Shown one piece after another: positions 12,281-63,643 of a DNA stretch of 64,000 nt. This DNA is from a virus. Each line of letters starts with the position of its first letter. Position 1 is the stretch's first letter. Location of the stretch: IMG/VR virus record IMGVR_UViG_3300009149_000020, positions 18,827-82,826 of that record. One strand, given 5' to 3'. The notes under the pieces are model-generated. The model had not been told where the DNA came from. It did no database searches and worked only from the letters and a program-made list of their open reading frames with translations. The position numbers were made by a program, and so were the translations under genes.

Positions 12281-12291
12281 AGGAGGAATAA

Positions 12292-12480: not shown

Positions 12481-12489
12481 GGAGGAATA

Positions 12490-13057: not shown

Positions 13058-13081
13058 ACCAAAAAGAGTAAAGGAGTCGAA

Positions 13082-13300: not shown

Positions 13301-13309
13301 GGAGGAACA

Positions 13310-13534: not shown

Positions 13535-13565
13535 TTTATGAATTATTTTATTCAAGGAGAAAATA

Positions 13566-14116: not shown

Positions 14117-14140
14117 CTAAATAATGTGGAGGAATGATGC

Positions 14141-14353
14141 ATGGGTAGATACGCAGAAACATATATTGAGCATTGTGGTGAATGTGGTGAATGTAGAATA
14201 GGACCTCGCTATATAAAAGATGGGTGGCATGTTAACCCTATTATATGTGGTATAAATGGAAAAGAGATAGCCACCCCAAAAGATGGTGATATTGACCCAG
14301 GAACATACGCTATGGAATTAGCTCATGTGCCCGACTGGTGCCCACTACAATAA
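14141..14353 (+). CDS. Hypothetical Cys-containing protein (70 aa)
   Basis: Contains CGECGECRIGPRYIKDGWHV near the N terminus, a cluster that may bind a metal, and WC at the C terminus. Not recognised. The start follows GTGGAGGAATGATGC. Confidence 0.5.
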   Translation: MGRYAETYIEHCGECGECRIGPRYIKDGWHVNPIICGINGKEIATPKDGDIDPGTYAMELAHVPDWCPLQ

Positions 14354-14363
14354 GGGAGGAATT

Positions 14364-14618
14364 ATGGAACTGTTAGAAGTTAACGTTGAGGTTATTGCAG
14401 GCGGTCTTTCTTGTGAGCATAACTACCCGTGTCCAGTATATAGTGATAAGCCTGCTGTGTACACTAGCTATGGCTATTTCCAGCCATCATGGGAAGCACA
14501 GAAGGAAGGCTGGAAATTAATCCGAACTACTAACAGGTTTCAGCGATTTATACTGAAATGGTTTTTTAATGATCGACCCATACCTGCTGTAAACAAGGAG
14601 AATAAAACACATGATTAA
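14364..14618 (+). CDS. Hypothetical protein (84 aa)
   Basis: The start at 14364 is chosen for the upstream AAGGGAGGAATT. It begins MELLEVNVEVIAGGLSCEHN and has a central YFQPSWEAQKEGW. Not recognised. Overlaps the next gene by 8 nt. Confidence 0.5.
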   Translation: MELLEVNVEVIAGGLSCEHNYPCPVYSDKPAVYTSYGYFQPSWEAQKEGWKLIRTTNRFQRFILKWFFNDRPIPAVNKENKTHD

Positions 14619-14883
14619 GGCAAAGGTGTACGATAGTTACGTAGAGTTCGACGAAGATGAAATATATGAGTTCCTCGCAGAAAAGTATGATATAGAGGAT
14701 GAAGATGAGATAGAACGGAAATGGGTGGCTGGAGAAATTACTAAAGAAGATGTATTTGCCGCGGCTAAAAACAGAATAGGCAATATCTATTCTATGCGTG
14801 GTGACTGTCCAGAGGATGATGCTATTCATATCATCGACGTAGAGGACTGGATGAAGATGAAGGAGAATAATGATGGAAAATGA
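14611..14883 (+). CDS. Hypothetical protein, paralogue of the gene at 15334
   Basis: This protein of 90 residues shares with 15334-15603 the start MIKAKV, a central (I/S)EDE-x2-(E/K)R block, an AxK-x-(R/V)I segment and a terminal Asp-rich strand (IHIIDVEDW against INIREITGV). Local duplication with divergence is the simplest reading. Function unknown. Start follows AAGGAGAATAAAACAC. Confidence 0.55.
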   Translation: MIKAKVYDSYVEFDEDEIYEFLAEKYDIEDEDEIERKWVAGEITKEDVFAAAKNRIGNIYSMRGDCPEDDAIHIIDVEDWMKMKENNDGK

Positions 14884-15118
14884 AATTGAACGGCTGAAGG
14901 TGGAGATTGAAGCAAAAGACAAGCAGATCAAAACATTGAGGAAGTTTGTGGAGGGTCTATCAAAACCTGAGCAATGCCACGAACATAGCAAATGCGAAAG
15001 CTACAACGGTGATGCTGCAACAAATGAAACGATATTGCACGAACAAAGATCAGCATGCCTTGATTGTATATCATTGGCAGCCGAGCAACTACTAGCCGAA
15101 CTCGGCAAGGAGGAATGA
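14873..15118 (+). CDS. Short coiled-coil protein (81 aa)
   Basis: The N-terminal half is a heptad-rich helix (IERLKVEIEAKDKQIKTLRK). The rest holds four Cys residues (CHEHSKC and CLDC). The start at 14873 lies after AAGGAGAATA and overlaps the upstream gene. Function unknown. Confidence 0.5.
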   Translation: MENEIERLKVEIEAKDKQIKTLRKFVEGLSKPEQCHEHSKCESYNGDAATNETILHEQRSACLDCISLAAEQLLAELGKEE

Positions 15119-15121
15119 AGA

Positions 15122-15235
15122 ATGAACATGGGATACACTGCGATAAGAGTTGGGGTGCTTAAAATCATAGGCTGTATTTTATTTTTCTCAGGGTGTGCTT
15201 TGGGTTTTTCAGTTTATTGGATTTTAGATAACTAG
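15122..15235 (+). CDS. Tiny single-span membrane protein (37 aa)
   Basis: Translates as a short basic N terminus followed by one long hydrophobic helix (GVLKIIGCILFFSGCALGFS) ending YWILDN. It is preceded by AAGGAGGAATGAAGA, directly after the previous stop. Small phage membrane proteins of this kind can inhibit or modify host envelope functions. Nothing more specific can be said. Confidence 0.5.
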   Translation: MNMGYTAIRVGVLKIIGCILFFSGCALGFSVYWILDN

Positions 15236-15243
15236 GAGGGAAA

Positions 15244-15337
15244 ATGGTATCACCAGAATGAACAAATTAAGGTTTCAACGAAAACTCTTAAACAATTAAT
15301 TAATGATATGAAGAGGTTGGTGAAGGAGGAAAAATGA
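15244..15337 (+). pseudogene. Probable decayed small gene (frameshift next to start)
   Basis: An ATG at 15244 sits correctly behind GGAGGGAAA but reaches a stop after five codons. Shifting frame immediately after it opens a frame of about 30 codons (WYHQNEQIKVSTKTLKQLIN, ending RLVKEEK) whose TGA overlaps the next gene's ATG in the usual ATGA fashion. The arrangement suggests a once-intact coupled gene that lost frame at its start. A sequencing error is also possible. Confidence 0.4.
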
Positions 15338-15603
15338 TTAAAGCAAAGGTAACCATTTTACTAGAGGAAGACAATGAGAAGCTTGTAAGTAAACTTGCAA
15401 AGGCAAACAACATTTCAGAAGATGAAGTTAAACGAAGATTTAAAACAAAAGAATTTCCCATTAATCATTTAATAGAAGTGGCCAAAACGGTTATCGCAGA
15501 TACCTGCTTCGATACTACCGATGGAACAATACGCCCACTTCATAATGATATAAACATACGTGAAATTACTGGAGTATACAAAGCTCCAGAAAATAATTGT
15601 TAA
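15334..15603 (+). CDS. Hypothetical protein, paralogue of the gene at 14611
   Basis: This protein of 89 residues begins MIKAKVTILLEEDNEKLVSK and shares spaced blocks with 14611-14883 (see that entry). It has no metal-binding or membrane motif. It follows GAAGGAGGAAAA and overlaps the remnant gene upstream by 4 nt. Confidence 0.55.
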   Translation: MIKAKVTILLEEDNEKLVSKLAKANNISEDEVKRRFKTKEFPINHLIEVAKTVIADTCFDTTDGTIRPLHNDINIREITGVYKAPENNC

Positions 15604-15612
15604 GGAGACCGA

Positions 15613-16005
15613 ATGAATTGGGAAACTATTGTATGTGTTGCCAAGAGACAAATAGATATGATTCCTTCAATTCTATTTATAATAGGTAATCTTTACTTTG
15701 TTTGGTGTATATGGTCTCTTTCTTTTCCATGTAAAGTACAACCTGACAACGTAAGCGAGCCAGAAGATATAGTAACAGAACCCAAGAAAGAATCAAAAAG
15801 TATAATACCAGAACCCAAGAAAGTATACAAGATAGAAATGCCAGAACTTTCTAAGGCTCCTGAAAAGGTGATCCCTCATCGTTCTTATAATGATCGCAAA
15901 ACTGTCGAAAAAAAGGATGAGAGACTGGATCGGTGGAGAGATGAAGCGGCAGAACGAAGATTACGTAAACGACGAGAACGAGATCGCCAATACTGGGGAT
16001 ATTAA
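15613..16005 (+). CDS. Membrane-anchored protein with Pro/Glu/Lys linker and basic tail
   Basis: This protein of 130 residues has one transmembrane span at about 18-38 (PSILFIIGNLYFVWCIWSL). A repetitive linker follows with two near-copies of (T/P)EPKK(E/V), then a strongly basic, Arg-rich C terminus (ERRLRKRRERDRQYWGY). The tail could bind nucleic acid or acidic lipids near the membrane. Start follows TAAGGAGACCGA. Confidence 0.6.
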   Translation: MNWETIVCVAKRQIDMIPSILFIIGNLYFVWCIWSLSFPCKVQPDNVSEPEDIVTEPKKESKSIIPEPKKVYKIEMPELSKAPEKVIPHRSYNDRKTVEKKDERLDRWRDEAAERRLRKRRERDRQYWGY

Positions 16006-24873: not shown

Positions 24874-25257
24874 GTGCTTAGTGAAGAGAAGATGAAAGAG
24901 TATCAAAAAGAATGGTATCAGAAAAACAAAGAAAAGATAAAAGAAAAGCATAAAGAATACCGTCAGAAAAACAAAGAAAAGATAAAAGAAAAGCATAAAG
25001 AATACCGTCAGGAAAACAAAGAAAAGATAAAAGAATACTATCAGGAAAATAAAGAGAAGCTACAAGAGTATCAAAAAGAGTACTATCAGGAAAATAAAGA
25101 GAAGCGGAAAGCATATTTACAGGAAAATAAAGAGAAGATACAAGAGTATCAAAAAGAGTATCAAAAAGAGTATCAAAAAGAGTATCAAAAAGAGTATCGT
25201 ATCAAAAATAAACAGAGAGCAAACGCACAGAAGATGAAGGAGAAAAGTAATGATTGA
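24874..25257 (+). CDS. Lys/Glu-rich repetitive coiled-coil protein
   Basis: This protein of 127 residues is built almost entirely of variants of KEYRQKNKEKIKE and KEYQ, predicting one long highly charged helix. GTG at 24874 is used, following TAAGGAGGACTAG. The composition and tandem DNA repeats indicate growth by slippage or unequal recombination. Similar KEY/NKEK repeat proteins occur in phages and bacteria without known function. It overlaps RtcB by 8 nt. Confidence 0.6.
   Translation: MLSEEKMKEYQKEWYQKNKEKIKEKHKEYRQKNKEKIKEKHKEYRQENKEKIKEYYQENKEKLQEYQKEYYQENKEKRKAYLQENKEKIQEYQKEYQKEYQKEYQKEYRIKNKQRANAQKMKEKSND
24916..25197 (+). repeat. Tandem DNA repeats inside the coiled-coil gene
   Basis: Two near-identical 45-bp units lie at 24916-24960 and 24961-25005, differing only in the first codon. 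A perfect 12-bp unit (CAAAAAGAGTAT) is repeated four times at 25150-25197. All units are multiples of 3, so copy-number change keeps the reading frame. Confidence 0.9.
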
Positions 25258-26728
25258 GATTAAAGGAAAGTACACTGAAGCAATTGTACATATTGATGAG
25301 GTAGAAGAAAGCTGCATTGCGCAAATTCAGTCAATGTGCAATCATTCTGCATTTACAAACCCTATTAAAATCATGCCTGATTGTCATGCAGGTAAAGGTT
25401 CTGTGATAGGCTTTACTATGCCGTTAGGAGACATGCTAATTGCTAATGTGGTCGGAGTTGACATAAACTGCGGAATGCTGTCTATAAATGTAGGCCCTGA
25501 CGCATTTACAAAGTTAACTTTTGTTGAAGTTGAGAAAAAGATAAGAGAAGCTATTCCATTCGGAATGTCAACACATACTCCAGAAGACGCTATTAATATG
25601 GAGAAAGAGTTTCCGTGGAAGAACGTTAATGAAGAAGTAAGAGAATTTCTAAGGGCATTTGAAAAGAAATTTGGCTTTACAGTGGCTCCTCCTGTTATTA
25701 ATTATGAATGGTTCAGGGCTAAGTGTAAACAAATAAGCTGTGACCCTTCAAGAGCTATAAGAAGTCTCGGAACACTTGGCTCGGGCAATCATTTCGTCGA
25801 AGTTGGAAAGGCTGAAACCACTAGAGACTACTGGGTTACAATCCATTCAGGTTCTAGAAACTTTGGTAAATGTATTTGTGATTATTGGCAAGGAGTTGCT
25901 AAGAAAATGCTCGATGATAAAAGAAACGGTGCATATCAAGAGAGAGTGTTAACGCTTAGAAGTAACCACGAAGCTGCCGGTACACCTGAGTTAATTCCTC
26001 AAGGCATAAAGCAACTTCGAGAAGAGTTAGGCTTTCTTGGTATAACCAAAGGAATGGAAGCATTAGAAGGAACTGATATGCTTAGTTATTTGATAGACAT
26101 GGTCTTTACACAGAAGTATGCTGATGTGAACAGACAAGTCATGGCTTTCAAAATTAAAGGTATCTTTAAGTGTGAAGAAAAAGACTCTATTCACACTAAA
26201 CATAACTTTATAGACTTCAAGGATTTCATAATTCGTAAAGGAGCTATCAGAAGTTATGTAGATGAAAGAATGATTATTCCTTTTAACATGCGTGATGGTA
26301 TTTTAATCTGTGAAGGCAAATCTAATACTGACTGGAACTTTTCAGCTCCTCATGGTGCAGGAAGAGTAATGAGCAGAGGAGATGCAAAAAGGAAACTTAA
26401 CATGGAGCAGTTTACACATCAGATGAAAGGCATCTATACTACGTCTGTTTGTGAAAGCACATTAGACGAAGCTCCTAATGCTTATAAAAAGTCAGAGTTA
26501 ATTGAAAGTTTGATAGGAGACACAGTTACAATTCTTGATAGGGTTAAACCAGTAATTTCTATGAAAGACAGAGGCTCTGCTCAAACTGCTATTGATAGAA
26601 AGAAAGCAAAAAGATCGTGGAAGAAAGAAAGAAGAGAAGCTGCAAGATACAAAATGCAGGAAGCAAACGCAACTGCAAACCTTCAGAATAACAGACATGG
26701 AGTAGATGAAGAAGGGAGGTTATTTTGA
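25250..26728 (+). CDS. rtcB: RtcB family RNA ligase
   Basis: RtcB joins 2',3'-cyclic phosphate and 5'-OH RNA ends using GTP and Mn2+. This protein of 492 residues shows the family motifs in order: KIMPDCHAGKG, GVDINCGM (about 68-75), LGSGNHFVEVG (about 175-185), HSGSRNFG (about 199-206) and PHGAGRVMSR, with His368 at the guanylylated-His position. It is longer than E. coli RtcB (408 residues), with extra sequence mainly in the middle and C terminus. With 21 phage tRNAs downstream, repair of tRNAs cut by host anticodon nucleases is a likely job. Start follows AAGGAGAAAAGTA. Confidence 0.93.
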   Translation: MIEIKGKYTEAIVHIDEVEESCIAQIQSMCNHSAFTNPIKIMPDCHAGKGSVIGFTMPLGDMLIANVVGVDINCGMLSINVGPDAFTKLTFVEVEKKIREAIPFGMSTHTPEDAINMEKEFPWKNVNEEVREFLRAFEKKFGFTVAPPVINYEWFRAKCKQISCDPSRAIRSLGTLGSGNHFVEVGKAETTRDYWVTIHSGSRNFGKCICDYWQGVAKKMLDDKRNGAYQERVLTLRSNHEAAGTPELIPQGIKQLREELGFLGITKGMEALEGTDMLSYLIDMVFTQKYADVNRQVMAFKIKGIFKCEEKDSIHTKHNFIDFKDFIIRKGAIRSYVDERMIIPFNMRDGILICEGKSNTDWNFSAPHGAGRVMSRGDAKRKLNMEQFTHQMKGIYTTSVCESTLDEAPNAYKKSELIESLIGDTVTILDRVKPVISMKDRGSAQTAIDRKKAKRSWKKERREAARYKMQEANATANLQNNRHGVDEEGRLF

Positions 26729-29752: not shown

Positions 29753-29924
29753 ACTTAAATTTAGTGATGGTATTGAATTTGAGACTAGTGGTGCCTTTAG
29801 AGTAGAAACAAGACATGATGGTCATTATGTAGTTGGACGAGGTTTTTTAATACCTGTCATGTCAGAGGACGAAGGAAGAGAAAAGATTAAAGACTTAGTG
29901 AGGAAGGAGGTTAATAATGAGTAA
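29745..29924 (+). CDS. Hypothetical small protein (59 aa)
   Basis: Begins MGKLKFSDGIEFETSGAFRV, a beta-hairpin-like start, with a helical C terminus (EGREKIKDLVRKEV). Start at 29745 lies after TCGGAGGACACAA. Overlaps both neighbours by 8 nt. Not recognised. Confidence 0.5.
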   Translation: MGKLKFSDGIEFETSGAFRVETRHDGHYVVGRGFLIPVMSEDEGREKIKDLVRKEVNNE

Positions 29925-31032
29925 ATCTGCAGAAGTTCCAGCATTGGCTACATGCCCTCTTGTCCGGTTAGGCAGATTTACTGTAATGGAAACCGTTCAT
30001 ACGTTACGCACCGAAACGCAGTTTACAAGTATTGTTGCTAATCTGGCTAAGCTTAACATCTCTATTGATGACCCGTTTGTATGGACGTCATCACTTTATA
30101 CTTTCTTCCATGAAGGGCCTCGTCCCGTGACAAATCTATTAACAGAAGCTGTATCGTCAGGAAATGCTAGTTTTACACTATGGTTATTGAATCAAGGTAT
30201 TAAGCCTAGCATTTATAATACCAAAGGAATTGCCGAGCCATCGCATCTCCTATACAAATTGTTACGTGTTGCTGGCAGAAGAAGGACTTCCTTAGCCGCA
30301 CTTATACAAACGTATAAGTTTCTCCTTTCCAAATACAACTTTGATTTTCAAGCACTGGATGCTCCTTACGGTAACAAAAAGACATTGCTTCACACAGTAT
30401 GTGAAATCTCCACAACTCGAGAAAGAGAGCTTGAGGCTTTGATGCAGTTTTTAATTGAAGCAGGGGTTAACATTAATCAACAAGACTCCGGAGGAAATAC
30501 CTCATTGCACATAGCAGTAAATACGTCATTGTCTGCTACACGCACTCTATTAAAGTTTTCCCCTGAATTAAACATTTTTAATAACTCAGGACAAACACCT
30601 TTGTTAAAAGCATGTCAGCTCGGAAGTGACTTAATAGTACCTATACTGTTAGAGGCGGGTGCTGATGTTAATGCTAAACATAAAAAATCAGGAGCAACAC
30701 CTTTATCTATCGCCATAGGTAAAAGAAATTGGGAGATGTTTAATTGTTGTATGAAGGCGGGTGCTAATAGTGCGCAAGCCTTCGAAGGACCGGAAAGTCC
30801 TTTAAAAGAAATGTTTAGAAAGACACATAAGAACACGCCTTATGGAGCGACATGTGCTTTTCTTGATTTGATTGCTGCCCTCCCTGTTGAAATGTTATCA
30901 GTAATGTGTTTTGCTAAAGATACTAAAACGAGTACATTAGCAAAAAAGATGCTTGTGTTAAAACAACGTTTTACAGAGCACGACGCAGCAAAAGCTACAA
31001 AGGAGGATGTCGATGGATTGGCAACCACGTGA
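29917..31032 (+). CDS. Ankyrin repeat protein with C-terminal CFAKD motif
   Basis: This protein of 371 residues carries clear ankyrin repeats in its second half (QFLIEAGVNINQQDSGGNTS, SGQTPLLKACQ, PILLEAGADVNAKHKKSG, then TPLSIAIGKRNWEMFNCCMK). The end is LSVMCFAKDTKTSTLAKKML, followed by VLKQRF, the family motif. It overlaps the next, closely related gene (31013), pointing to tandem duplication. Confidence 0.8.
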   Translation: MSKSAEVPALATCPLVRLGRFTVMETVHTLRTETQFTSIVANLAKLNISIDDPFVWTSSLYTFFHEGPRPVTNLLTEAVSSGNASFTLWLLNQGIKPSIYNTKGIAEPSHLLYKLLRVAGRRRTSLAALIQTYKFLLSKYNFDFQALDAPYGNKKTLLHTVCEISTTRERELEALMQFLIEAGVNINQQDSGGNTSLHIAVNTSLSATRTLLKFSPELNIFNNSGQTPLLKACQLGSDLIVPILLEAGADVNAKHKKSGATPLSIAIGKRNWEMFNCCMKAGANSAQAFEGPESPLKEMFRKTHKNTPYGATCAFLDLIAALPVEMLSVMCFAKDTKTSTLAKKMLVLKQRFTEHDAAKATKEDVDGLATT

Positions 31033-32137
31033 GAAGGACATAAAACTTGCATGTAAAGTAGAGTATACACATGGTGATGGAACAGTACAAACCAAGGATC
31101 TTGCTACCTTTATAAGTTGTGGAATACGTTCGTGCTTAGCACCTCAAGGACTTGAGAAGCTCCTCACTGTATTAAAAGCGCTTGATGTTACAGATGATAC
31201 ACTTAGTTTATGCTATGTTCAACACTATGGTTACATGCCGCTCTTTCAAGTTCTTATAAGGTCAAATGATCCTTTCACTATTGACTTTTTTGTAAGAAAG
31301 GAAACAATTAACCTTGATGATTATCCTGACCTTATTGAGGATATAGGTCGGAATTACACTAACTGGTATCATGAGCATACTCCTACTGCGCCTGTGCCTA
31401 CGCTACTGTCCATATTTAAGTATGTAATAGATGAAAGAAAGCATATTAGCTTTGCTACTAAGAAAAGCAAACCAAAGAAGCTACTTGAGCGGTTGTTAAA
31501 CTGTACTTATCGTTTACGATTAACGCGTGATGAATGGGTTGAATTATTTGACTATTTTGAAACAAAAGGTTATCCTTTTGATAAAAAGAATTCATCGGGA
31601 ACAACACCACTCATGGTTGCATGCGAGGCTAGCAATATAGAGGCAGTCGCAGCACTTATCACAAAAGGAGCTAATGTTAACAATGTTAATAGTTCAGGAT
31701 TGACACCGTTGTTAAAAGCTGTAAAAGTAGATAATCTTACTACAGTTGGGATGCTTCTTGAAGCAGGCGCTGACATAGATAAGACACAAAAAAATTCAGG
31801 AAAGTCTGCTCTTGAACTAGCAGTGACTTCAGGCAATACTGAAATGGTTAAGTTGCTTAAACGTTCCGGTGCTAACATGCTTGTAGCTTGTGAAGGAAAA
31901 AATAATCCGTTTTTTATTAAATCTGATACTTATGGAAAGATTGATTTTGATAAAATACTCAGTTTACTTGAACTTGCAGCAGACTCCCCTGAAGGGTTGT
32001 TAACCGCAATGCTTTTTGCTATTCCTGCTAAAAATAAGGAAGCACGCGATCTTCTTGAAAAGATTTTAAAGATTAAAAATAGCAACAAGCAAGCTAAGGA
32101 GGATACTAATGAGGAAGGCAGTGAGGTGGATGTGTGA
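31013..32137 (+). CDS. Ankyrin repeat protein, tandem paralogue
   Basis: This protein of 374 residues is built like its upstream neighbour: a divergent helical N-terminal half, then ankyrin repeats (SSGTTPLMVACEASNIEAVA, LITKGANVNNVNSSGLTPLL, GMLLEAGADIDKTQ) and the C-terminal motif, here LLTAMLFAIPAKNKEARDLL. ATG 31013 has correct spacing from AAGGAGG; the ATG at 31007 sits on that site. Confidence 0.8.
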   Translation: MDWQPREKDIKLACKVEYTHGDGTVQTKDLATFISCGIRSCLAPQGLEKLLTVLKALDVTDDTLSLCYVQHYGYMPLFQVLIRSNDPFTIDFFVRKETINLDDYPDLIEDIGRNYTNWYHEHTPTAPVPTLLSIFKYVIDERKHISFATKKSKPKKLLERLLNCTYRLRLTRDEWVELFDYFETKGYPFDKKNSSGTTPLMVACEASNIEAVAALITKGANVNNVNSSGLTPLLKAVKVDNLTTVGMLLEAGADIDKTQKNSGKSALELAVTSGNTEMVKLLKRSGANMLVACEGKNNPFFIKSDTYGKIDFDKILSLLELAADSPEGLLTAMLFAIPAKNKEARDLLEKILKIKNSNKQAKEDTNEEGSEVDV

Positions 32138-36366: not shown

Positions 36367-37021
36367 AGTTCATACTAGCTCTTATAAACTTGCTAAACTT
36401 GGAAATTTTTTATCATACTTCGATTGTCCTTTTCCTCCAAGAATAAGTGATGGCGCAACATTGTTAGGGGCCATCCTCGAATTAATGAAAAGAGGGGCAA
36501 CTGTTGAATTACCTGAAACATTTAAAACTTCTAAGGATTGGTGGGATAGAGCGGCTTATTGTTTAACAACAGGAAAGGAGCTTCCAAATGACACATCTAA
36601 GTTAGTGAGGTGCGCTTACTTAATGACTTGTCCTGAAGTAGAAGAAGCCAAGCATAATTCTTACGAAGTAATTAGAGCATTATACTATACAGCAAATAAT
36701 TGGACAGACCCTGATTGGTTGTTGGATGACTCTGCTAAGATACGTAGACAAGGTGCTGTATTGAGCCCAAGCGTTGACTTTACCCAAGAGAGTGTAACAA
36801 CAGCATATATCGCTTTACTTAATGATATTCTTCAAACTACACATGCTAAACGTTTAACTAGTAAAAATGACTTTAACATTTTACGAACATTACAAAAGCT
36901 GGAGAAAGCTATACTTTCGCGTTTACTACTTGAGAATGACAAAATTATACACCCACGTTTTAAAAAAGTTATTAAAGACATTCTTGACGAAGTACCAGTT
37001 GAAAAGATTTTTGGAGGGTAA
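36353..37021 (+). CDS. Member of a 22-24 residue 'RxxYY..W.D' repeat family (short)
   Basis: This protein of 222 residues contains two copies of the unit found in the next genes: VRCAYLMTCPEVEEAKHN and IRALYYTANNWTDPDW. The second ends with the W-x-D-x-D-W-like terminal form. The flanking N- and C-terminal regions are helical. Start follows AAAGGAGAAAATA and overlaps the upstream gene by 14 nt. Function unknown. Confidence 0.55.
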   Translation: METFKVHTSSYKLAKLGNFLSYFDCPFPPRISDGATLLGAILELMKRGATVELPETFKTSKDWWDRAAYCLTTGKELPNDTSKLVRCAYLMTCPEVEEAKHNSYEVIRALYYTANNWTDPDWLLDDSAKIRRQGAVLSPSVDFTQESVTTAYIALLNDILQTTHAKRLTSKNDFNILRTLQKLEKAILSRLLLENDKIIHPRFKKVIKDILDEVPVEKIFGG

Positions 37022-37025
37022 GCGT

Positions 37026-37850
37026 ATGGGATGGTTAACCGGAAAGGGTACCGAAGTAGAGAAAAAGGAAAAAACAGAAGATGTGTTTGACTATAAGATT
37101 AAAAGAGATTCAGACAATTATGTTAACGTTAAACACTATAGGCAAAAGTATTCGCTTAATTATCGAGATAGGTTTGAGTATTATGCTAATGTAACGGACT
37201 GGAAGGACGAAGACGCAAGAGACGATCCTGCAGAAACAGTCAGACGTACTTACTATGATACGTGTGCTTGGAAGGATGCTTATGCAAAAAAAGATGAGTC
37301 TGTAACTATTAGATATACTTATTACAAAAATAATAAATGGAAGGACGCTGATGCAAAAAAAGATGAAAATGCAGATATACGTATTTCCTACTATGATGCT
37401 CATAACTGGTCTGACTTTGATTGGTATACGGAGACAAACTTATCTGTTATAAACAAAGGTTTTAGCTCCTGCCAGTCATTCTTAATAAACGACGACTTTA
37501 TACAATGCTTAGAACTAGTTCTTGTACAGCCACCACCTTATTCTCAGATCGCAGTATGGTTAGGCCCCTTTGACCTATATTCTTTATTTAAACTAGTATC
37601 TAGGTTATCTGAAGCACTATGTTCTAGATTATTATTTGCTCAGTTGCAAGACGCAACTCGAGAGCTTATTGGATTTTTTATGACAATTAAGAATGATGAT
37701 AAAAAATTTGTACAGTTCTGGCAGATCATTATAGAAGCTAATGATGATCATCCATCTTTAAAGTGTACCTCACTAGCTACAGCTGTAGCAGAATGTACTG
37801 TCGCAGATTTAGAAGAGACGGAGGAAGTGATTGAAGAAACCGAAATATAG
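37026..37850 (+). CDS. Repeat protein with three exact-length 23-residue units
   Basis: This protein of 274 residues starts at 37026 after GGAGGGTAAGCGT. Residues about 59-131 hold three consecutive 23-residue units beginning VRRTYYDTCAWKDAYAKKD, IRYTYYKNNKWKDADAKKD and IRISYYDAHNWSDFDW. A helical C-terminal domain follows (after NKGFSSCQSFLI) with an acidic end. The rhythm is like variant leucine-rich (LRV) or HEAT-type solenoids. The partner is unknown; three sister genes are at 36353, 38098 and 59810. Confidence 0.65.
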   Translation: MGWLTGKGTEVEKKEKTEDVFDYKIKRDSDNYVNVKHYRQKYSLNYRDRFEYYANVTDWKDEDARDDPAETVRRTYYDTCAWKDAYAKKDESVTIRYTYYKNNKWKDADAKKDENADIRISYYDAHNWSDFDWYTETNLSVINKGFSSCQSFLINDDFIQCLELVLVQPPPYSQIAVWLGPFDLYSLFKLVSRLSEALCSRLLFAQLQDATRELIGFFMTIKNDDKKFVQFWQIIIEANDDHPSLKCTSLATAVAECTVADLEETEEVIEETEI

Positions 37851-38088
37851 AGTCAAACATATTCTTAAGATAACCAAAACTTTGAAGTATGAAAAAGTTG
37901 TTACACTGGATGAAGGTATTGCTAGAGTATTAACATTAGTCGGAAAAGATTATGGAACGGCTTCTGTAGTTAGAGCCAACATTGATTTAGAATTATTAAA
38001 TGAGCAAGGTAAATGGCAATCGTGGGTTGATGACAATGGTCATGATATTATCGATATATTAAATGTTGAGGTATTTGAGAATGTATAA
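37831..38088 (+). CDS. Hypothetical protein (85 aa)
   Basis: Uses TTG at 37831 after ACGGAGGAAGTGA, overlapping the upstream gene by 20 nt. Begins KKPKYRVKHILKITKTLKYE. Not recognised; the protein at 39196 opens with a loosely similar VKTLEYKNI segment. Confidence 0.45.
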   Translation: MKKPKYRVKHILKITKTLKYEKVVTLDEGIARVLTLVGKDYGTASVVRANIDLELLNEQGKWQSWVDDNGHDIIDILNVEVFENV

Positions 38089-38097
38089 GGAGGTTAA

Positions 38098-38949
38098 ATG
38101 ACCACTGAAGAAAACGCAAAGTTTTTGAAAACATTTATAGAGAAAATAGATTATACTGTCATAAATGGCGCCACTTTACGCATAATGACATCTGGCTTAC
38201 TAGCACTAAAAGCAGCAAGAAACCTTACGAAGGTTACGGTAAGATCTAATTGCCTAGTTTCACGTAACTGGCAGTACTCTACCATATTTATAAATATGTT
38301 TGATGCTATTACATGTGATTGTACTAAAGAGGATGAGCAAAAGTATTTAAAGAATTTAGACATAAGCGTAAGACTTTGCTATTATGCAAATGCACAAAAT
38401 ATTAAATTGATGTTTGAGGATCATTGTGTAGATGTTAGGAGAATAGGGTATGAGTTAGCAATGTATCCAGAGGAGATGAAAAAAGATAGAGCGACTAGTA
38501 TTCGCCGTGGGTATTATAAGTATCATCATATGGGATATCATTTAGATATGAAACATGATACGCATTATGAGGTAAAGAGACAATATTACAAACATAACGC
38601 TTATCAAGATATAGATTGGATCATCGATCCTCACAGTCAAATTTTTTGCAATGGTTTTAATAATGCGTTGGATGGTAATCGTTTGTCCGATGACCAAGTA
38701 GCAGCGCTTAAAGCATCATTAACTAAGCGGCATATAAAAAGATTTTTTGAAAGAATCATAAACCTTAATTATTATAGTCAACGATTCACTAGTAATAATG
38801 TGGGTAAACAGCAACTTCTTAGTATCATGTATGATTTAGCGCCAACACTATTTGTGCGTACTGTATTTTCATTAAAGGACGCAGAAGCACGAAAGGCCTG
38901 GCAATCAATAGTTCATGAGAAAGAAAGGAGGAACGTATGCAAGAAGTAG
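38098..38949 (+). CDS. Member of the 22-24 residue repeat family
   Basis: This protein of 283 residues has four units at about 95-190: VRLCYYANAQ, VRRIGYELAMYPEEMKKD, IRRGYYKYHHMGYHLDMKHD and VKRQYYKHNAYQDIDW. The final GF and a helical C-terminal domain follow, as in 37026. The repeats here are more diverged, with His/Tyr enrichment. Start follows AAGGAGGTTAA. Confidence 0.6.
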   Translation: MTTEENAKFLKTFIEKIDYTVINGATLRIMTSGLLALKAARNLTKVTVRSNCLVSRNWQYSTIFINMFDAITCDCTKEDEQKYLKNLDISVRLCYYANAQNIKLMFEDHCVDVRRIGYELAMYPEEMKKDRATSIRRGYYKYHHMGYHLDMKHDTHYEVKRQYYKHNAYQDIDWIIDPHSQIFCNGFNNALDGNRLSDDQVAALKASLTKRHIKRFFERIINLNYYSQRFTSNNVGKQQLLSIMYDLAPTLFVRTVFSLKDAEARKAWQSIVHEKERRNVCKK

Positions 38950-51000: not shown

Positions 51001-51555
51001 GTGCTAGTATACAAAGGAACATTACTTAACAAAACGTCTAAAGGTAATCTTGTGTTCGGAGATGAACACAAATTAATAGATCCGTTCTGTCCTAGTAAGA
51101 ATAGCATCCAAGCTTGTCCAGACCCATACCAATGTTTTCTATACGGTGTATGGGACGAGTTATGGTTAGCTGAAATGAATGTTATTTCTCAAAGTGGTTG
51201 TGTTCTGCATGGAGACCATATAAAATTTTTAAAACAGCTTGAATTTGCAGAAGGTTTGAACATGACTAAGAATATGCCTATGTTTGCATATTATTGGGCT
51301 GTTAATTTTCACGACATTTTAAGTGAAGAAGAACGGGAGCGTCTTATTCCGTATATAACTAAAGACGAGGAATGTGTAATTAGCTGGGCGGAGAATATGG
51401 GTACTTATTTAAACATATTAAAGACAGCTATCTATACTCCACGTTATAGTTACTTATGGAAATTAGAAGGATTTCCGACAACGCCTCACATAGAAGCGAT
51501 GTCTGACGAGTACACACGTGTGACAAAACAATCTTGGAGAAAAAGAAGGCTTTAA
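51001..51555 (+). CDS. Hypothetical protein (184 aa)
   Basis: Uses GTG at 51001 (TAGGGGAGTAACCAATAC upstream). Several Cys and Trp residues (DPFCPSKNSIQACPDPYQC) might bind a metal. The C terminus is basic (TKQSWRKRRL). Not recognised; it lies just before the primase-like gene. Confidence 0.5.
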   Translation: MLVYKGTLLNKTSKGNLVFGDEHKLIDPFCPSKNSIQACPDPYQCFLYGVWDELWLAEMNVISQSGCVLHGDHIKFLKQLEFAEGLNMTKNMPMFAYYWAVNFHDILSEEERERLIPYITKDEECVISWAENMGTYLNILKTAIYTPRYSYLWKLEGFPTTPHIEAMSDEYTRVTKQSWRKRRL

Positions 51556-51578
51556 CTTTAAAGAGGAACTATACGTAA

Positions 51579-53129
51579 ATGGCAAGACTTGAAGATTACT
51601 TATCTAAGCGAAAGAAAACGATTGAGCCTACAGCTACTCAGGGACCGACGAGTTCTTTTGTTATACAGCAACATACTACTTTTATCAATAAGAAAAATGT
51701 AGGATTTATTGTCTGTTATCCTCATAAATCAAAAGAGGATTCATTTGCCTTTATCTTTGATAACAAACTTTATACTCATAAAGGCATCAAACCAATCACT
51801 GAAGAACTAAATCAAAGCAATGCTCTGCTTATCCCCGTTACCAAAGGTGTCGAATTTGATACAATGCACGATAGAGCAGATTCATCATTGCATTTAATTC
51901 AGAAAATTATACCGCCTTTACGTGCAGTAAATGGTATTGATAAACTTTTATTATTTTATTATGGAGAAAGTAATCTACGCTTACCAACAATTATTGAAGA
52001 AAAAAGCAGAAGAAAGCTTACTGCCTCCCGTAAGGGAGCAGCACTTATTCTTTTTAGAGGAACGGACAATCTACGAACTCATTACGATTTCAGATTACCT
52101 TACGAAGGTGTTTTAAAATCGTGGGCTGTCCCTAAGACATTACCTTCGTGGAGCAGACGAAATGCTCTAGCTATTGAGACAGAAGACCATCCACTCAGTT
52201 ATGGAACATTTAGCGGAACTATTCCCTTTGGTTATGGAATGGGTCAAGTAGAGATTTATGACACAGGTAACATAACTATAACACGTGCAGAAGAAACTGT
52301 GTATGCATTCGAGCTTTTCGGAAAGCATATAAAAGGGAACTACATTTTGAAGAAACAAAAGGATTCAGATGCTAATTGGTTCTTTTCTTTTGCTGCTCCT
52401 AAAAAGAAAGAAGAAGTAGAAAAGCCTACACAGGTTTCCAAAGAGCTTGCTCCTCCTGCGTTTATCCAGGATGAGTACAAAACTCCATCGAGACCTGATG
52501 TATCTTTACAATACAAATATACACCAACCATGTCACCAGTAAGAAGGACATATCAACAGTTTAACGATTCGGTGTTTAAGAAGAACTTTAACCTGCTATA
52601 TTCAGGTTCGTATGAGCTCTTATTATCAACAGAGTTTATACAAGGTAACAAAACCTTCTACCAAATCGACTTAGACTTTGATAGCCTTACAGCCGTTTCG
52701 GCTATTAAACAATTAGCAGGTATGCTTAGACAGCATGACTTAGATAATTTGTTTATTGTACAATGCTCTGGTGGCGGTTATCACGTACGTAGCCTTTTCG
52801 CTATTAGCGGAATTTCTTACCAGCAACTTAAAGACTCAGAGTTCTTTAAACAATTTTCTTACTTAGATATTGTTTCAAGCTTTAGAGTTACGCCCTCGAG
52901 AGTGCCTTATGCCTACTCACAAAAACGAAAGTTTACAAACTTCGCTGTGACGGTACCACAATTCCTCACACTGGATGTTAAGGAAACTATACAATACTTT
53001 TCAGCAACACCTAATAAGATTATGCAGCCAGCAGAGTTTAGAGGTTTGCTTGATTACTTTTATCTTCCTCATGCGTTTATCACAAAGGAGGATGATATCG
53101 CTAGACGATTTTTGAAGTTGATAAAATAA
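51579..53129 (+). CDS. LigD-like fusion of 3'-phosphoesterase and archaeo-eukaryotic primase-type domain
   Basis: This protein has 516 residues. Residues about 155-275 match the LigD 3'-phosphoesterase (PE) domain: LRTHYDFRLPYEGVLKSWAV with His168, then AIETEDHPLSYGTFSGTIPF with His204, and a GNYILKKQ strand. After a Pro-rich linker, residues about 330-510 resemble the LigD polymerase/AEP primase domain: YQIDLDFDS gives Asp364 and Asp366, CSGGGYHV gives Ser397 and His402, and FRVTPSRVPYAYS follows. The N-terminal 150 residues are unrecognised and no ATP-dependent ligase domain is present. In bacterial LigD these parts serve end joining. Here, among replication genes, it may be the phage primase-polymerase or a repair enzyme. 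Confidence 0.75.
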   Translation: MARLEDYLSKRKKTIEPTATQGPTSSFVIQQHTTFINKKNVGFIVCYPHKSKEDSFAFIFDNKLYTHKGIKPITEELNQSNALLIPVTKGVEFDTMHDRADSSLHLIQKIIPPLRAVNGIDKLLLFYYGESNLRLPTIIEEKSRRKLTASRKGAALILFRGTDNLRTHYDFRLPYEGVLKSWAVPKTLPSWSRRNALAIETEDHPLSYGTFSGTIPFGYGMGQVEIYDTGNITITRAEETVYAFELFGKHIKGNYILKKQKDSDANWFFSFAAPKKKEEVEKPTQVSKELAPPAFIQDEYKTPSRPDVSLQYKYTPTMSPVRRTYQQFNDSVFKKNFNLLYSGSYELLLSTEFIQGNKTFYQIDLDFDSLTAVSAIKQLAGMLRQHDLDNLFIVQCSGGGYHVRSLFAISGISYQQLKDSEFFKQFSYLDIVSSFRVTPSRVPYAYSQKRKFTNFAVTVPQFLTLDVKETIQYFSATPNKIMQPAEFRGLLDYFYLPHAFITKEDDIARRFLKLIK

Positions 53130-59809: not shown

Positions 59810-60565
59810 ATGGCATTTGATTGCACCGATGATGACAACAGGATGATGGCTATCCTAACTAAGCTTAGAGAAAAATATCCTATTCCTCTTGAGGATATAG
59901 AATTTGCTAGAAATCGACCAAATCCTGAACATAGGCAAGGTTATTATGAAGCTGTTAACTGGGATGACGATAACGCAAAACTAGACGCTGCTCCTAAGAT
60001 AAGGTATATTTACTATGCTAAATGGTCTTGGGAGGACGAAGCTGCTATAAAAGATATTGATCTTTCGATAAGAGCTGCTTACTTTACAAATAATCCTAAA
60101 GATGAGAGAGCTAAAGAAGCTCCAGAATTTTCTATACAGATGCAATACTTTGCCAACAACCCACTTGACCCAGTTGCAGCTGTTCATTCAAATGAATTTA
60201 TAAGACTTCAATATCATCAAGCTTCCTCGTGGAAAGACTATTCATGGTATAACGATGAAAGCATAATGATTATCAGAATGGGCTTTCTAAATTGTACTGA
60301 CTTTACTATCACAGAATCATTCTATCAAGCTCTTGAGAAACTATTCACAACGCAATTCTGCACAAGCACCGTAAACTTAAAAATTGTACTTAGAAGACTT
60401 GATGCTATAGTGCTGGCTGCTCTTGCTTTTAGAAAGATTATTGATCCAAATGTTAAAAATATTATACAACAAGTATTAAAGGAGAAACAAAATGTCGCCG
60501 AAATATCAAGATCCACGGATAGCTTACATACCGATGACTCGGACAGCCCTGAAGAGGGCTATTAG
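59810..60565 (+). CDS. Fourth member of the 22-24 residue repeat family
   Basis: This protein of 251 residues has consecutive units IRYIYYAKWSWEDEAAIKD, IRAAYFTNNPKDERAKEAP, IQMQYFANNPLDPVAAVHS and IRLQYHQASSWKDYSWYND, followed by MGF and a helical C-terminal domain. It matches 37026 and 38098 but sits 21 kb away beside the RNA polymerase genes. The NNP turns resemble variant leucine-rich (LRV) repeats. It overlaps the next gene by 74 nt, unusual in this genome. Confidence 0.65.
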   Translation: MAFDCTDDDNRMMAILTKLREKYPIPLEDIEFARNRPNPEHRQGYYEAVNWDDDNAKLDAAPKIRYIYYAKWSWEDEAAIKDIDLSIRAAYFTNNPKDERAKEAPEFSIQMQYFANNPLDPVAAVHSNEFIRLQYHQASSWKDYSWYNDESIMIIRMGFLNCTDFTITESFYQALEKLFTTQFCTSTVNLKIVLRRLDAIVLAALAFRKIIDPNVKNIIQQVLKEKQNVAEISRSTDSLHTDDSDSPEEGY

Positions 60566-61560: not shown

Positions 61561-61647
61561 GGAGAGATAGTCTAATTGGCAAGACAGCAGGCTGTAACCC
61601 TGTCGCTAAAACTAGCATTGGAGGTTCGAGTCCTTCTCTCTCCACCA
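61561..61647 (+). tRNA. tRNA-Tyr (GTA)
   Basis: Acceptor GGAGAGA/TCTCTCC, anticodon loop CTGTAAC, long variable arm as usual for bacterial tRNA-Tyr, A73 and encoded CCA. First gene of the array. Confidence 0.93.
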
Positions 61648-61654
61648 GACATTG

Positions 61655-61742
61655 GGTGGTATGTAGATTAGATCCCTGGCTTAGGGGAAGACGTCTTAAC
61701 CTAAGTGAAGACTAATAGAACGCCACCGCTATTAAGCCAAGG
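61655..61742 (+). other. Structured non-coding spacer between tRNA-Tyr and tRNA-His
   Basis: No T-loop or tRNA fold is present, yet several helices are possible: GGTGGT (61655-61660) with GCCACC (61722-61727); CCCTGGCTTA (61674-61683) with TAAGCCAAGG (61733-61742), one mismatch; CTTAGG with CCTAAG; and the palindrome AAGACGTCTT (61688-61697). It may be a small RNA, a processing element or a decayed gene. Confidence 0.45.
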
Positions 61743-61758
61743 TAAAACTTGGTAGAAC

Positions 61759-61835
61759 GTGGCCGTTGGCAAAATGGATAAGCCACCAGATTGTGGTTCT
61801 GGTCATTGGGGGTTCAAGTCCCCTCGGTCACCCCA
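61759..61835 (+). tRNA. tRNA-His (GTG)
   Basis: Acceptor GTGGCCG/CGGTCAC, anticodon stem CCAGA/TCTGG with loop TTGTGGT, C73 and encoded CCA. The base before position 1 is C, not the encoded G-1 expected to pair with C73 in bacterial tRNA-His. Confidence 0.9.
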
Positions 61836-61911
61836 GCGGGTGTAGCTCAGTTGGTAGAGTTCCTGCCTTCCAAGCAGACTGTCGCGAGTTCGAGCCTCGC
61901 TACCCGCTCCA
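61836..61911 (+). tRNA. tRNA-Gly (TCC)
   Basis: Acceptor GCGGGTG/TACCCGC, D stem GCTC/GAGT, anticodon loop CTTCCAA with one mismatched outer stem pair, T73 and encoded CCA. It abuts tRNA-His with no spacer. Confidence 0.9.
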
Positions 61912-61948
61912 GAAAATTATACTCAGGAGGGTATAAAAATATAACAAG

Positions 61949-61976
61949 TAGGGGTATGGTGTAGTCTGGTAACATG
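61949..61976 (+). pseudogene. Truncated tRNA 5' half
   Basis: AGGGGTA, TG and a D arm (GTGT...ACAT) look exactly like positions 1-26 of a tRNA. The sequence then runs straight into tRNA-Trp one base later, with no anticodon arm, T arm or 3' end. Its amino-acid identity cannot be read. Confidence 0.55.
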
Positions 61977-61977
61977 T

Positions 61978-62052
61978 AGACCCGTGGTGTAATGGCTAGC
62001 ATTACTGTCTCCAAAACAGTTGATGAGGGTTCGAGTCCTTCCGGGTCTGCCA
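61978..62052 (+). tRNA. tRNA-Trp (CCA)
   Basis: Acceptor AGACCCG/CGGGTCT, anticodon stem ACTGT/ACAGT with loop CTCCAAA, G73 as in bacterial tRNA-Trp, and encoded CCA. Confidence 0.93.
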
Positions 62053-62061
62053 AACAAATGA

Positions 62062-62138
62062 AGCCGAGTGTCCGAGTGTGGCTCAGGTGGAAGACTGCAA
62101 ATCTTTCTACGTCGGTTCAAGTCCGACCTCGGCTTCCA
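62062..62138 (+). tRNA. tRNA-Cys (GCA)
   Basis: Acceptor AGCCGAG/CTCGGCT, anticodon loop CTGCAAA, U73 as expected for Cys, encoded CCA. The D arm is atypical. The acceptor stem is identical to that of tRNA-Gln at 63170. Confidence 0.88.
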
Positions 62139-62139
62139 A

Positions 62140-62216
62140 GGACCAGTAGCTCAAATGCGTAGAGCTCCCGGCTCATAACCGGATGGTTGAAGGTTCGAGT
62201 CCTTTCTGGTCCACCA
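62140..62216 (+). tRNA. tRNA-Met or tRNA-Ile2 (CAT)
   Basis: Acceptor GGACCAG/CTGGTCC is fully paired at 1-72, so this is not an initiator. Anticodon loop CTCATAA, A73, encoded CCA. A CAT anticodon may be Met or, after lysidine modification, Ile. No other Ile tRNA is in the array. Confidence 0.9.
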
Positions 62217-62255
62217 AAAGATTAAGGAGAAGATAAATATAGAAGTAAGTTAAAT

Positions 62256-62332
62256 GGGTCCGTAACTCTAATTGGGAGAGTGTCTGCCCTGCAAGCAGAA
62301 AGTTGAGAGTTCGAGTCTCTCCGGATCCACCA
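62256..62332 (+). tRNA. tRNA-Ala (TGC)
   Basis: Acceptor GGGTCCG/CGGATCC, including a G-U at 3-70 as in bacterial tRNA-Ala, anticodon stem TCTGC/GCAGA with loop CCTGCAA, A73 and encoded CCA. Confidence 0.93.
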
Positions 62333-62340
62333 GAAAGTAA

Positions 62341-62417
62341 GCCCTGGTATATCAATTGGCTAGATAGTCGGTTTTGTAATCCGAAGGCTGTAGGTTCGAG
62401 TCCTACCCAGGGCCCCA
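62341..62417 (+). tRNA. tRNA-Thr (TGT)
   Basis: Acceptor GCCCTGG/CCAGGGC, anticodon loop TTTGTAA with a T-T mismatch at the top of the anticodon stem, C73, encoded CCA. Confidence 0.87.
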
Positions 62418-62427
62418 AATATTACGT

Positions 62428-62515
62428 TGAGCGATGACCGAGTGGTCGAAGGTGGATGGCTGTTAACCATTTAGGAGAAATCCTCACGTAGGTTCAAATC
62501 CTACTCGCTCAGCCA
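62428..62515 (+). tRNA. tRNA-Asn (GTT) with a long, class II-like variable arm
   Basis: Acceptor TGAGCGA/TCGCTCA, anticodon stem GATGG/CCATT with loop CTGTTAA, G73 and encoded CCA. The variable region includes AGGA/TCCT around GAAA, a hairpin expected in Ser, Leu or Tyr tRNAs but not in Asn. Confidence 0.85.
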
Positions 62516-62525
62516 AACTTTACGT

Positions 62526-62601
62526 GGTCCCATCGTCTAATGGCTTAGGACGGCAGACTTTCTATCTGCAAATGTCGGTTCGATTCCGACTGGGACTACC
62601 A
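62526..62601 (+). tRNA. tRNA-Glu (TTC)
   Basis: Acceptor GGTCCCA/TGGGACT, anticodon stem GCAGA/TCTGC with loop CTTTCTA, A73 and encoded CCA. Confidence 0.93.
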
Positions 62602-62611
62602 AACATTACGT

Positions 62612-62686
62612 CGGTGTGTAGCCAAACGGTAAGGCATCGCCCTTTTAAGGCGAGGATTGGAGATTCGACTTCTCCCACACCGACCA
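62612..62686 (+). tRNA. tRNA-Lys (TTT)
   Basis: Acceptor CGGTGTG/CACACCG, anticodon stem TCGCC/GGCGA with loop CTTTTAA, A73, encoded CCA. The following 72 nt up to 62758 contain nothing I can identify. Confidence 0.92.
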
Positions 62687-62758
62687 GCTAGTAAGTATTA
62701 ACATATATAACAATAGTTTTTAATGGAGGTACGGTAGTAATAACAGTTTAAGAAACGT

Positions 62759-62836
62759 TGCGGGATGACGCAGTCTGGTCAGCGTGCAAGCCTCATAAGC
62801 TTGAAGTCGAGGGTTCAAATCCCTCTCCCGCTACCA
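62759..62836 (+). tRNA. tRNA-Met (CAT), initiator-like acceptor
   Basis: Five-prime TGCGGGA and three-prime TCCCGCT pair except at 1-72 (T-T mismatch), the hallmark position of initiator tRNAs. Body sequence (TGACGCAGTCTGGTCAGCGT) and CTCATAA loop resemble bacterial tRNA-fMet. The anticodon stem lacks the three consecutive G-C pairs. A73 and CCA are encoded. Confidence 0.85.
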
Positions 62837-62837
62837 A

Positions 62838-62913
62838 GGGTGATTAGCTCAGCTGGGAGAGCACCTCTTTTACACGGAGGGGGCCGGCAGTTCAATCCTG
62901 TCATCACCCACCA
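62838..62913 (+). tRNA. tRNA-Val (TAC)
   Basis: Acceptor GGGTGAT/ATCACCC, D stem GCTC/GAGC, anticodon loop TTTACAC, A73 and encoded CCA. Confidence 0.93.
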
Positions 62914-62914
62914 G

Positions 62915-62990
62915 GCGGTTATAGTTCAGTTGGAAGAACATCTGCTTGCCATGCAGAAGGTCGTGAGTTCGAACCTCACTAACCGCTCCA
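62915..62990 (+). tRNA. tRNA-Gly (GCC)
   Basis: Acceptor GCGGTTA/TAACCGC, anticodon stem TCTGC/GCAGA with loop TTGCCAT, T73 and encoded CCA. Second Gly isoacceptor in the array. Confidence 0.93.
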
Positions 62991-62991
62991 C

Positions 62992-63073
62992 GGTGGTATG
63001 GTCTAGTTAGGTCTAGGACGCCTGGTTGTCAGCCAGGAAACTTTCGGGGGTTCAAATCCCCCTACCACCGCCA
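62992..63073 (+). tRNA. tRNA-Asp (GTC)
   Basis: Acceptor GGTGGTA/TACCACC, anticodon stem CCTGG/CCAGG with loop TTGTCAG, G73 and encoded CCA. The variable loop (AAACTTTC) is slightly long. Confidence 0.9.
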
Positions 63074-63075
63074 AA

Positions 63076-63162
63076 GGAAGGCTCGCCTAATTGCGCAGGG
63101 CAGCAGACTTGAAATCTGCCGGGGTAAAACCTGTGGGGGTTCGAATCCCTCGCCTTCCGCCA
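63076..63162 (+). tRNA. tRNA-Ser (TGA)
   Basis: Acceptor GGAAGGC/GCCTTCC, anticodon stem GCAGA/TCTGC with loop CTTGAAA, long variable arm as expected for Ser, G73 and encoded CCA. Confidence 0.93.
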
Positions 63163-63169
63163 AAAGTAA

Positions 63170-63244
63170 AGCCGAGTGGTGTAATCGGCAACACGAAAGA
63201 CTCTGACTCTTTCGTTCAAGGTTCAAATCCTTGCTCGGCTTCCA
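63170..63244 (+). tRNA. tRNA-Gln (CTG)
   Basis: Acceptor AGCCGAG/CTCGGCT, anticodon stem AAAGA/TCTTT with loop CTCTGAC, T73 and encoded CCA. The acceptor is identical to that of tRNA-Cys at 62062. Confidence 0.88.
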
Positions 63245-63251
63245 GATATGT

Positions 63252-63327
63252 GCCGCTTTCGTATAGTTGGTCTGTACGCTGGATTGAAGCTCCAGAGGTC
63301 TCCGTTCGATCCGGAGGGGCGGCACCA
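63252..63327 (+). tRNA. tRNA-Phe (GAA)
   Basis: Acceptor GCCGCTT/GGGCGGC with two G-U pairs, anticodon stem CTGGA/TCCAG with loop TTGAAGC, A73 and encoded CCA. Confidence 0.92.
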
Positions 63328-63335
63328 AATATTGT

Positions 63336-63411
63336 GCTCCTGTGCGCCAACTGGATGGCAAACGGCCTTCTAAGCCGTAACATGCAGGTTCGAGTCCTGC
63401 CAGGAGTACCA
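63336..63411 (+). tRNA. tRNA-Arg (TCT)
   Basis: Acceptor GCTCCTG/CAGGAGT, anticodon stem ACGGC/GCCGT with loop CTTCTAA, A73 and encoded CCA. Reads AGA/AGG, codons favoured by AT-rich genes. Confidence 0.92.
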
Positions 63412-63419
63412 GTAAGTGA

Positions 63420-63496
63420 GGGGATGTGGCGCAACTGGACAGCGCTACTGACTTCGGATCAGAAGGTTGAGGGTTCGAATCCTTCCATCCCCGCCA
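63420..63496 (+). tRNA. tRNA-Arg (TCG)
   Basis: Acceptor GGGGATG/CATCCCC, anticodon loop CTTCGGA with one mismatched outer stem pair, G73 and encoded CCA. Confidence 0.88.
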
Positions 63497-63537
63497 AACC
63501 CTTCGCACCAAGTGCGACAGTGAAACACCTGTGGGTT
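63497..63537 (+). other. Small RNA-like three-way junction between tRNAs
   Basis: AACCC (63497-63501) can pair with GGGTT (63533-63537), enclosing hairpin TCGCAC/GTGCGA around CAA and a second hairpin ACAGTG/CACCTGT around AAA with one bulge. The fold is compact but is not a tRNA. Confidence 0.45.
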
Positions 63538-63567
63538 AAGATGTTTGACATTATATAGTTATTGCGT

Positions 63568-63643
63568 GGCCCTATAGTTTAGGGGTTTAGAATACTGGCC
63601 TCTCAAGCCAGAGACAGCAGTTCGATTCTGCTTAGGGCTACCA
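63568..63643 (+). tRNA. tRNA-Glu (CTC)
   Basis: Acceptor GGCCCTA/TAGGGCT, anticodon stem CTGGC/GCCAG with loop CTCTCAA, A73 and encoded CCA. Second Glu isoacceptor, reading GAG; last gene of the array. Confidence 0.9.

What the first reader, a model, noticed from the sequence alone, without database searches (positions are those of the whole stretch)
51579..53129. LigD-like phosphoesterase-primase fusion without a ligase in a phage replication block
The protein joins a PE domain (His168 in THYDFR, His204 in EDHPLSYG) to an AEP/LigD-Pol-like domain (Asp364-x-Asp366; Ser397-GGGY-His402; FRVTPSRVPYAYS). LigD combines these with a ligase for bacterial end joining. Here the ligase is absent, the order is PE then AEP, and an extra 150-residue N-terminal domain is present. 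No other primase is visible nearby, so it may be the phage primase-polymerase with built-in 3'-end cleaning.
Basis: partly seen in the sequence, partly recalled or inferred. Interest (0 to 1): 0.75.

Follow-up and report, generated by a model that had tools for sequence, protein, structure and literature searches.

The report
Phage end-trimming and primase-like fusion protein
A virus of bacteria that carries its own RNA polymerase genes encodes one protein joining a DNA 3'-end-cleaning domain, known from the bacterial break-repair enzyme LigD, to a primase-like DNA/RNA-making domain, without LigD's ligase; this pairing in one protein appears new, but what it does is inferred, not shown.

Summary
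The 516-aa ORF (51579-53129, +) is real. Residues ~160-272 are a LigD-type 3'-phosphoesterase (PE): Pfam LigD_N E=3e-24, and the AlphaFold model matches archaeal PE crystal structures (TM 0.91-0.93). The AEP fold itself is not proven: models are weak, and profile scores depend on motif II.

No ligase, Ku or recognised primase was found in the 82.8-kb fragment, but the record is incomplete. The closest relative (L097) has the same gene block without this gene, so it looks accessory rather than the core primase. 101 of 102 PE domains keep a metal-binding His that is Thr162 here; an 'FVIQQH' motif 130 residues upstream may supply it (His32) around an insertion, or the PE may be inactive.

Among viral contigs with RNA polymerase beta', 13 of 49 carry a PE, nine of them 4-7 kb from a DnaG-type primase. 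Interpretation partly supported; a new variant of known domains.

The parts
51579..53129 (+). PE-AEP fusion gene, 516 aa (stop included)
51563..51568 (+). Possible ribosome-binding sequence (GAGG) before the ATG
   Evidence: read directly from the sequence; not tested
51657..51674 (+). FVIQQH (residues 27-32), possible displaced first strand of the PE with His32 as metal ligand
   Evidence: not supported or excluded by the model
51675..52043 (+). N-terminal region of unknown fold (residues ~33-155), possibly an insertion inside the PE
   Evidence: no Pfam match; low pLDDT
52056..52394 (+). LigD-type 3'-phosphoesterase (PE) domain, residues ~160-272
52062..52064 (+). Thr162, at the place of the metal-binding His42 of P. 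aeruginosa LigD
52080..52088 (+). His168-Tyr-Asp170, PE metal ligands (His48 and Asp50 of PaLigD)
52182..52202 (+). E202-D-H204-P-L-S-Y208, PE phosphate-binding residues
52479..53126 (+). AEP-like domain, residues ~301-516
52674..52682 (+). AEP motif I, D366-F-D368
52767..52784 (+). AEP motif II, S397-GGGY-H402
52866..52868 (+). AEP motif III, D430
52899..52907 (+). Flange Arg motif, R441-V-P
51001..51555 (+). 184-aa ORF of unknown function, absent together with the fusion gene from the closest relative L097

Best explanation
The gene encodes a phage accessory enzyme that joins a LigD-type 3'-end-healing domain (PE) to an AEP-type nucleotidyl-transfer domain. The most likely action is on 3' ends or short primers met during phage replication and recombination. 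The PE removes 3'-phosphates or terminal ribonucleotides in a metal-dependent reaction. The AEP domain then adds nucleotides with D366/D368/D430 and H402, as a primase or gap-filling polymerase. Sealing would be left to a host or unseen phage ligase. SHOWN: the PE fold (by model), the residues kept and missing, the motif set, and conservation of the motifs in a distant homologue. INFERRED: any catalysis, the substrate, cooperation between the domains, and the role in end processing rather than as the sole primase.
For: PE: Pfam E=3e-24, PDB matches, TM 0.91-0.93 to archaeal PEs. AEP: motifs I-III and flange Arg in order, kept in a 28%-identical stand-alone homologue; AEP families rank first of 146 families in profile comparison. 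Setting: PolA-UDG, SSB, RecA, SbcCD-like and nuclease genes on the same strand. In other RNA-polymerase phages PE genes sit close to a primase, and one virus fuses PE to a PolX polymerase. The closest relative lacks the gene but keeps the block, which points to an accessory role.
Against: Thr162 replaces an essential PE metal ligand, so the PE may be inactive. The AEP fold is not confirmed: pLDDT ~66 and ~43, no PDB match, and AEP profile scores vanish when motif II is masked. No activity data; the record is incomplete.
Confidence: 0.5

Rival explanations
1. It is the phage's main replicative primase-polymerase, the PE trimming primer 3' ends.
For: Replication block; no other primase recognised in 82.8 kb; phage AEPs such as NrS-1 polymerase are replicative (PMC7102993, PMC8718748).
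Against: The closest relative has the block without the gene. No helicase is fused or adjacent, unlike typical viral replicative AEPs (PMC5862659). The record is a fragment, so a primase may lie elsewhere.
Confidence: 0.25
2. The PE is a catalytically dead DNA-end-binding adaptor that brings the AEP domain to 3' ends.
For: Thr162 in place of an essential metal ligand, 101 of 102 other PEs keep His; Gln40 position is Arg160.
Against: All other catalytic residues are kept, which is unusual for a dead enzyme; FVIQQH at 27-32 may supply the His.
Confidence: 0.35
3. It is an end-joining (NHEJ) enzyme that works with a host ligase and Ku, as separate Pol, PE and Lig proteins do in archaea.
For: PE and AEP are LigD's two end-processing activities (PMC8656161).
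Against: No Ku or ATP-dependent ligase in this record or in most relatives; the AEP does not match LigD's polymerase family.
Confidence: 0.15
4. The C-terminal domain is not an AEP; the motifs are a coincidence, and only the PE is identified.
For: No Pfam, NCBIfam or PHROGs match. SGGGYHV also occurs in dioxygenase-like proteins, which score as high against the AEP profile.
Against: Four motifs in AEP order, all key residues kept in a homologue that has lost the SGGG itself (TGTSVH). Dioxygenases share only 8-18 columns in the profile comparison, with low probability. The model core is beta-beta-alpha-beta-beta with D366 ending a strand and S397 ending the next.
Confidence: 0.2

Closest known systems
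Bacterial LigD (PE + Pol + ligase)
   Same: PE domain, and an AEP-type domain in the same chain
   Different: No ligase; AEP not in the LigD_Prim-Pol family; one PE metal ligand replaced; long N-terminal region; phage setting
Archaeal stand-alone PE (3p43, 3p4h, 5dmp)
   Same: Fold TM 0.91-0.93, ~40-47% identity in the domain
   Different: Fused to other domains; Thr162 in place of the metal His
L144 AEP-like gene and PE gene (IMGVR_UViG_3300020139_000039)
   Same: Both domains present; AEP-like part 28% identical; among multi-subunit RNA polymerase genes
   Different: Two separate genes, AEP first; that PE keeps its first metal His
Phage and mobile-element AEPs (PrimPol type, e.g. NrS-1 polymerase; L217-type phage proteins)
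   Same: Motifs I-III and flange Arg
   Different: Those are usually fused or adjacent to helicases; none found here has a PE
PE-PolX fusion in virus contig L006
   Same: PE fused to a DNA polymerase without ligase
   Different: Polymerase is family X, not AEP; PE keeps its metal His

Membership tests
LigD 3'-phosphoesterase domain (PF13298) | Profile match over the curated cut-off | tested here: met
   85.6 bits against 31.1; TIGR02777 matched at 102 bits but below its own cut-off of 144
LigD 3'-phosphoesterase domain (PF13298) | PE beta-barrel fold | tested here: met
   pLDDT ~95, TM 0.91-0.93 to 3p43/3p4h
LigD 3'-phosphoesterase domain (PF13298) | Metal ligands His42, His48, Asp50 (PaLigD numbering) | tested here: inconclusive
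   His168 and Asp170 kept; His42 place is Thr162; His32 of FVIQQH may replace it
LigD 3'-phosphoesterase domain (PF13298) | 3'-phosphatase and ribonucleoside-removing activity | not testable with these tools
   needs biochemistry
Bacterial LigD | ATP-dependent ligase domain | tested here: not met
   none in the protein or in the record
Bacterial LigD | LigD primase-polymerase family domain (PF21686) | tested here: not met
   no match in the record or in the protein
Archaeo-eukaryotic primase superfamily | Motif I hhhDhD, motif II sxH, motif III hD | tested here: met
   D366/D368, H402, D430, all aligned with 12 phage AEPs and kept in L144
Archaeo-eukaryotic primase superfamily | Sequence-profile similarity beyond motif II | tested here: inconclusive
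   top of 146 families, but lost when motif II is masked
Archaeo-eukaryotic primase superfamily | AEP/RRM-like catalytic fold | tested here: inconclusive
   suggestive topology at pLDDT ~66, no structural match
Non-homologous end joining system | Ku partner | tested here: inconclusive
   no Ku in 13 records searched, but records are incomplete
Replicative primase of the phage | Primer synthesis and being the phage's primase | not testable with these tools
   needs biochemistry and a complete genome

The most novel reading that the evidence does not exclude
A phage PE-AEP 'clean-and-extend' enzyme in which the PE active site is split: the first strand and metal ligand (FVIQQH, His32) lie 130 residues before the rest of the domain, with an unknown module inserted between two metal ligands, possibly gating the active site, and with an AEP polymerase but no ligase.
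Probability: 0.3. Interest if true: 0.65.

Novelty: new variant of a known kind. Interest (0 to 1): 0.5.

Why it matters
PE domains are known mainly from bacterial end joining and from archaea. Finding them repeatedly in RNA-polymerase-encoding phages, near or fused to primases and polymerases (AEP here, PolX in L006), suggests a role in 3'-end processing during viral replication that does not need Ku or LigD. The fusion gives a single protein in which that link can be tested directly.

Tried and rejected
Direct relative searches with the whole protein in IMG/VR and in the phage collection found nothing; relatives came only through the RNA polymerase beta' gene and PE profiles. A scan with the two-sequence AEP alignment returned only L144. 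My first profile test ranked this protein top among ~28,500 ORFs and reversed decoys, with LigD proteins next. A fairer control with SGGGYHV-bearing dioxygenase-like proteins and motif masking showed that the score was driven by motif II, so I do not use it as proof. The AEP-only AlphaFold job was poor and its structure search gave no meaningful match. Negative Pfam searches for DnaG parts proved insensitive, since a related phage has a PHROGs-detected primase that they missed. PHROGs and a profile of that phage primase family also showed none in this record (the PHROGs table shows only 25 of 43 families). One script printed altered copies of the AEP stretch, meant to steer a pattern search; I dropped this and never used it. 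No paper found describing PE domains in phages or a PE-AEP fusion; the paper library is limited.

Full report
WHAT IS THERE. The ORF at 51579-53129 (+) encodes 516 residues. It lies in a single-strand gene run: SbcD-like (40090), PolA with N-terminal UDG domain (41139), gp32-like SSB (44226), RecA/UvsX (45188), PD-DExK/RusA-like nuclease (46306), SbcC-like (48449), two unknown ORFs, this gene, then RNA polymerase beta' and beta. The source is an 82,826-base viral record, probably incomplete.

PE DOMAIN. Residues 166-258 match LigD_N at 3e-24, and PE sequences of solved structures match at up to 1e-26. AlphaFold with 43 sequences gives pLDDT ~95 over most of the domain, and the model matches 3p43 and 3p4h with TM 0.91-0.93. 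His168, Asp170, Arg172, Ser181, Glu202, His204 and Tyr208 correspond to PaLigD His48, Asp50, Arg52, Ser61, Glu82, His84 and Tyr88. According to PMC8656161, His42, His48 and Asp50 bind Mn2+ and each is essential. The His42 position is Thr162 here, and 101 of 102 distinct PE domains examined keep a His there.

A POSSIBLE DISPLACED STRAND. Other PE domains begin FVIQxH or similar, 6-8 residues before HYDFR. In this protein FVIQQH occurs at 27-32, about 135 residues upstream. The strict pattern is expected 0.0006 times in a region of that size. MAFFT aligns it to the PE start, and it is the piece of the PE profile missing from the main domain, although that fragment alone scores no better than chance. 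This suggests an insertion between two metal ligands. AlphaFold, given no alignment there, instead used residues 154-163 as the first strand and left 27-32 at low confidence. I leave this open.

AEP DOMAIN. No family library matches it. P0001 found a 26-28%-identical stand-alone ORF in viral contig L144 at E=4.5e-9. In an alignment with it and 12 phage AEPs, the invariant positions are D366, D368, G398, H402, D430 and R441. They match the published AEP motifs I-III and a flange Arg (PMC5862659). The 12 AEPs were picked by the SGGGYHV motif, so only the other motifs are independent evidence. Profile-profile comparison puts AEPs first (46% and 70% probability for the motif-centred alignment; best of 146 families), but this depends on motif II. 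The full-length model shows beta-beta-alpha-beta-beta around the motifs at pLDDT ~66. I rate AEP membership at about 80%.

CONTEXT IN OTHER PHAGES. The closest relative, L097 (beta' 62% identical, 84 kb), has the same block but goes straight from the 188-aa ORF to beta'. Both the 184-aa ORF and this gene are missing there, and neither P0001 nor LigD_N matches elsewhere in that record. Of 49 viral records with RNA polymerase beta', 13 carry a PE. In 9 of the 12 whose neighbourhoods I fetched, the PE lies 3.7-7.2 kb from a DnaG-type primase on the same strand; in the one annotated in detail (L199) clamp loader, RuvC, ribonucleotide reductase and RecA genes lie nearby too. L144 holds two RNA polymerase gene sets, with the AEP-like and PE genes between them. 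L006 encodes a PE-PolX fusion. So PE domains in phages repeatedly sit with primases or polymerases, and no Ku was found.

CONCLUSION. The best-supported picture is an accessory phage enzyme with 3'-end healing and AEP-type nucleotide addition in one chain. Its role as the phage's sole primase is possible but not favoured. Catalysis by either domain is inferred. The pieces are known; the combination, its viral setting and the odd PE metal site appear new.

Noticed in passing
L144 (IMGVR_UViG_3300020139_000039) 2-15758: A phage contig with two RNA polymerase gene sets (two beta' and two beta), and the AEP-like and PE genes between them.
   Followed up: partly
L006 7953-9080: A 235-kb viral contig encodes a PE domain fused to a PolX-type DNA polymerase.
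   Followed up: partly
L199-L210: LigD-type PE genes recur in RNA-polymerase-encoding phages, nine of twelve within 4-7 kb of a DnaG-type primase; many of these PEs have lost the EDHPxxY motif (e.g. L171 TDHTKKEA).
   Followed up: partly
window 10743-12017: An ORF with RNA polymerase alpha-CTD-like repeats and an N-terminal helix-turn-helix that looks sigma-region-4-like; possibly a partner of the phage RNA polymerase.
   Followed up: no
window and L096, about 10 ORFs (e.g. window 29917-32137, 7073-7612): Many ankyrin-repeat proteins, unusual in number for a phage.
   Followed up: no
L096 4077-15927 and window 36867-38949, 59810-60565: A set of paralogues with repeated 'YY...W.D.DA.KD' units, function unknown.
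   Followed up: no
window 61561-63643: Cluster of 21 tRNA genes downstream of the RNA polymerase genes.
   Followed up: no
window 25250-26728 and 282-1328: RtcB-type RNA ligase and a family S58 peptidase encoded by the phage.
   Followed up: no
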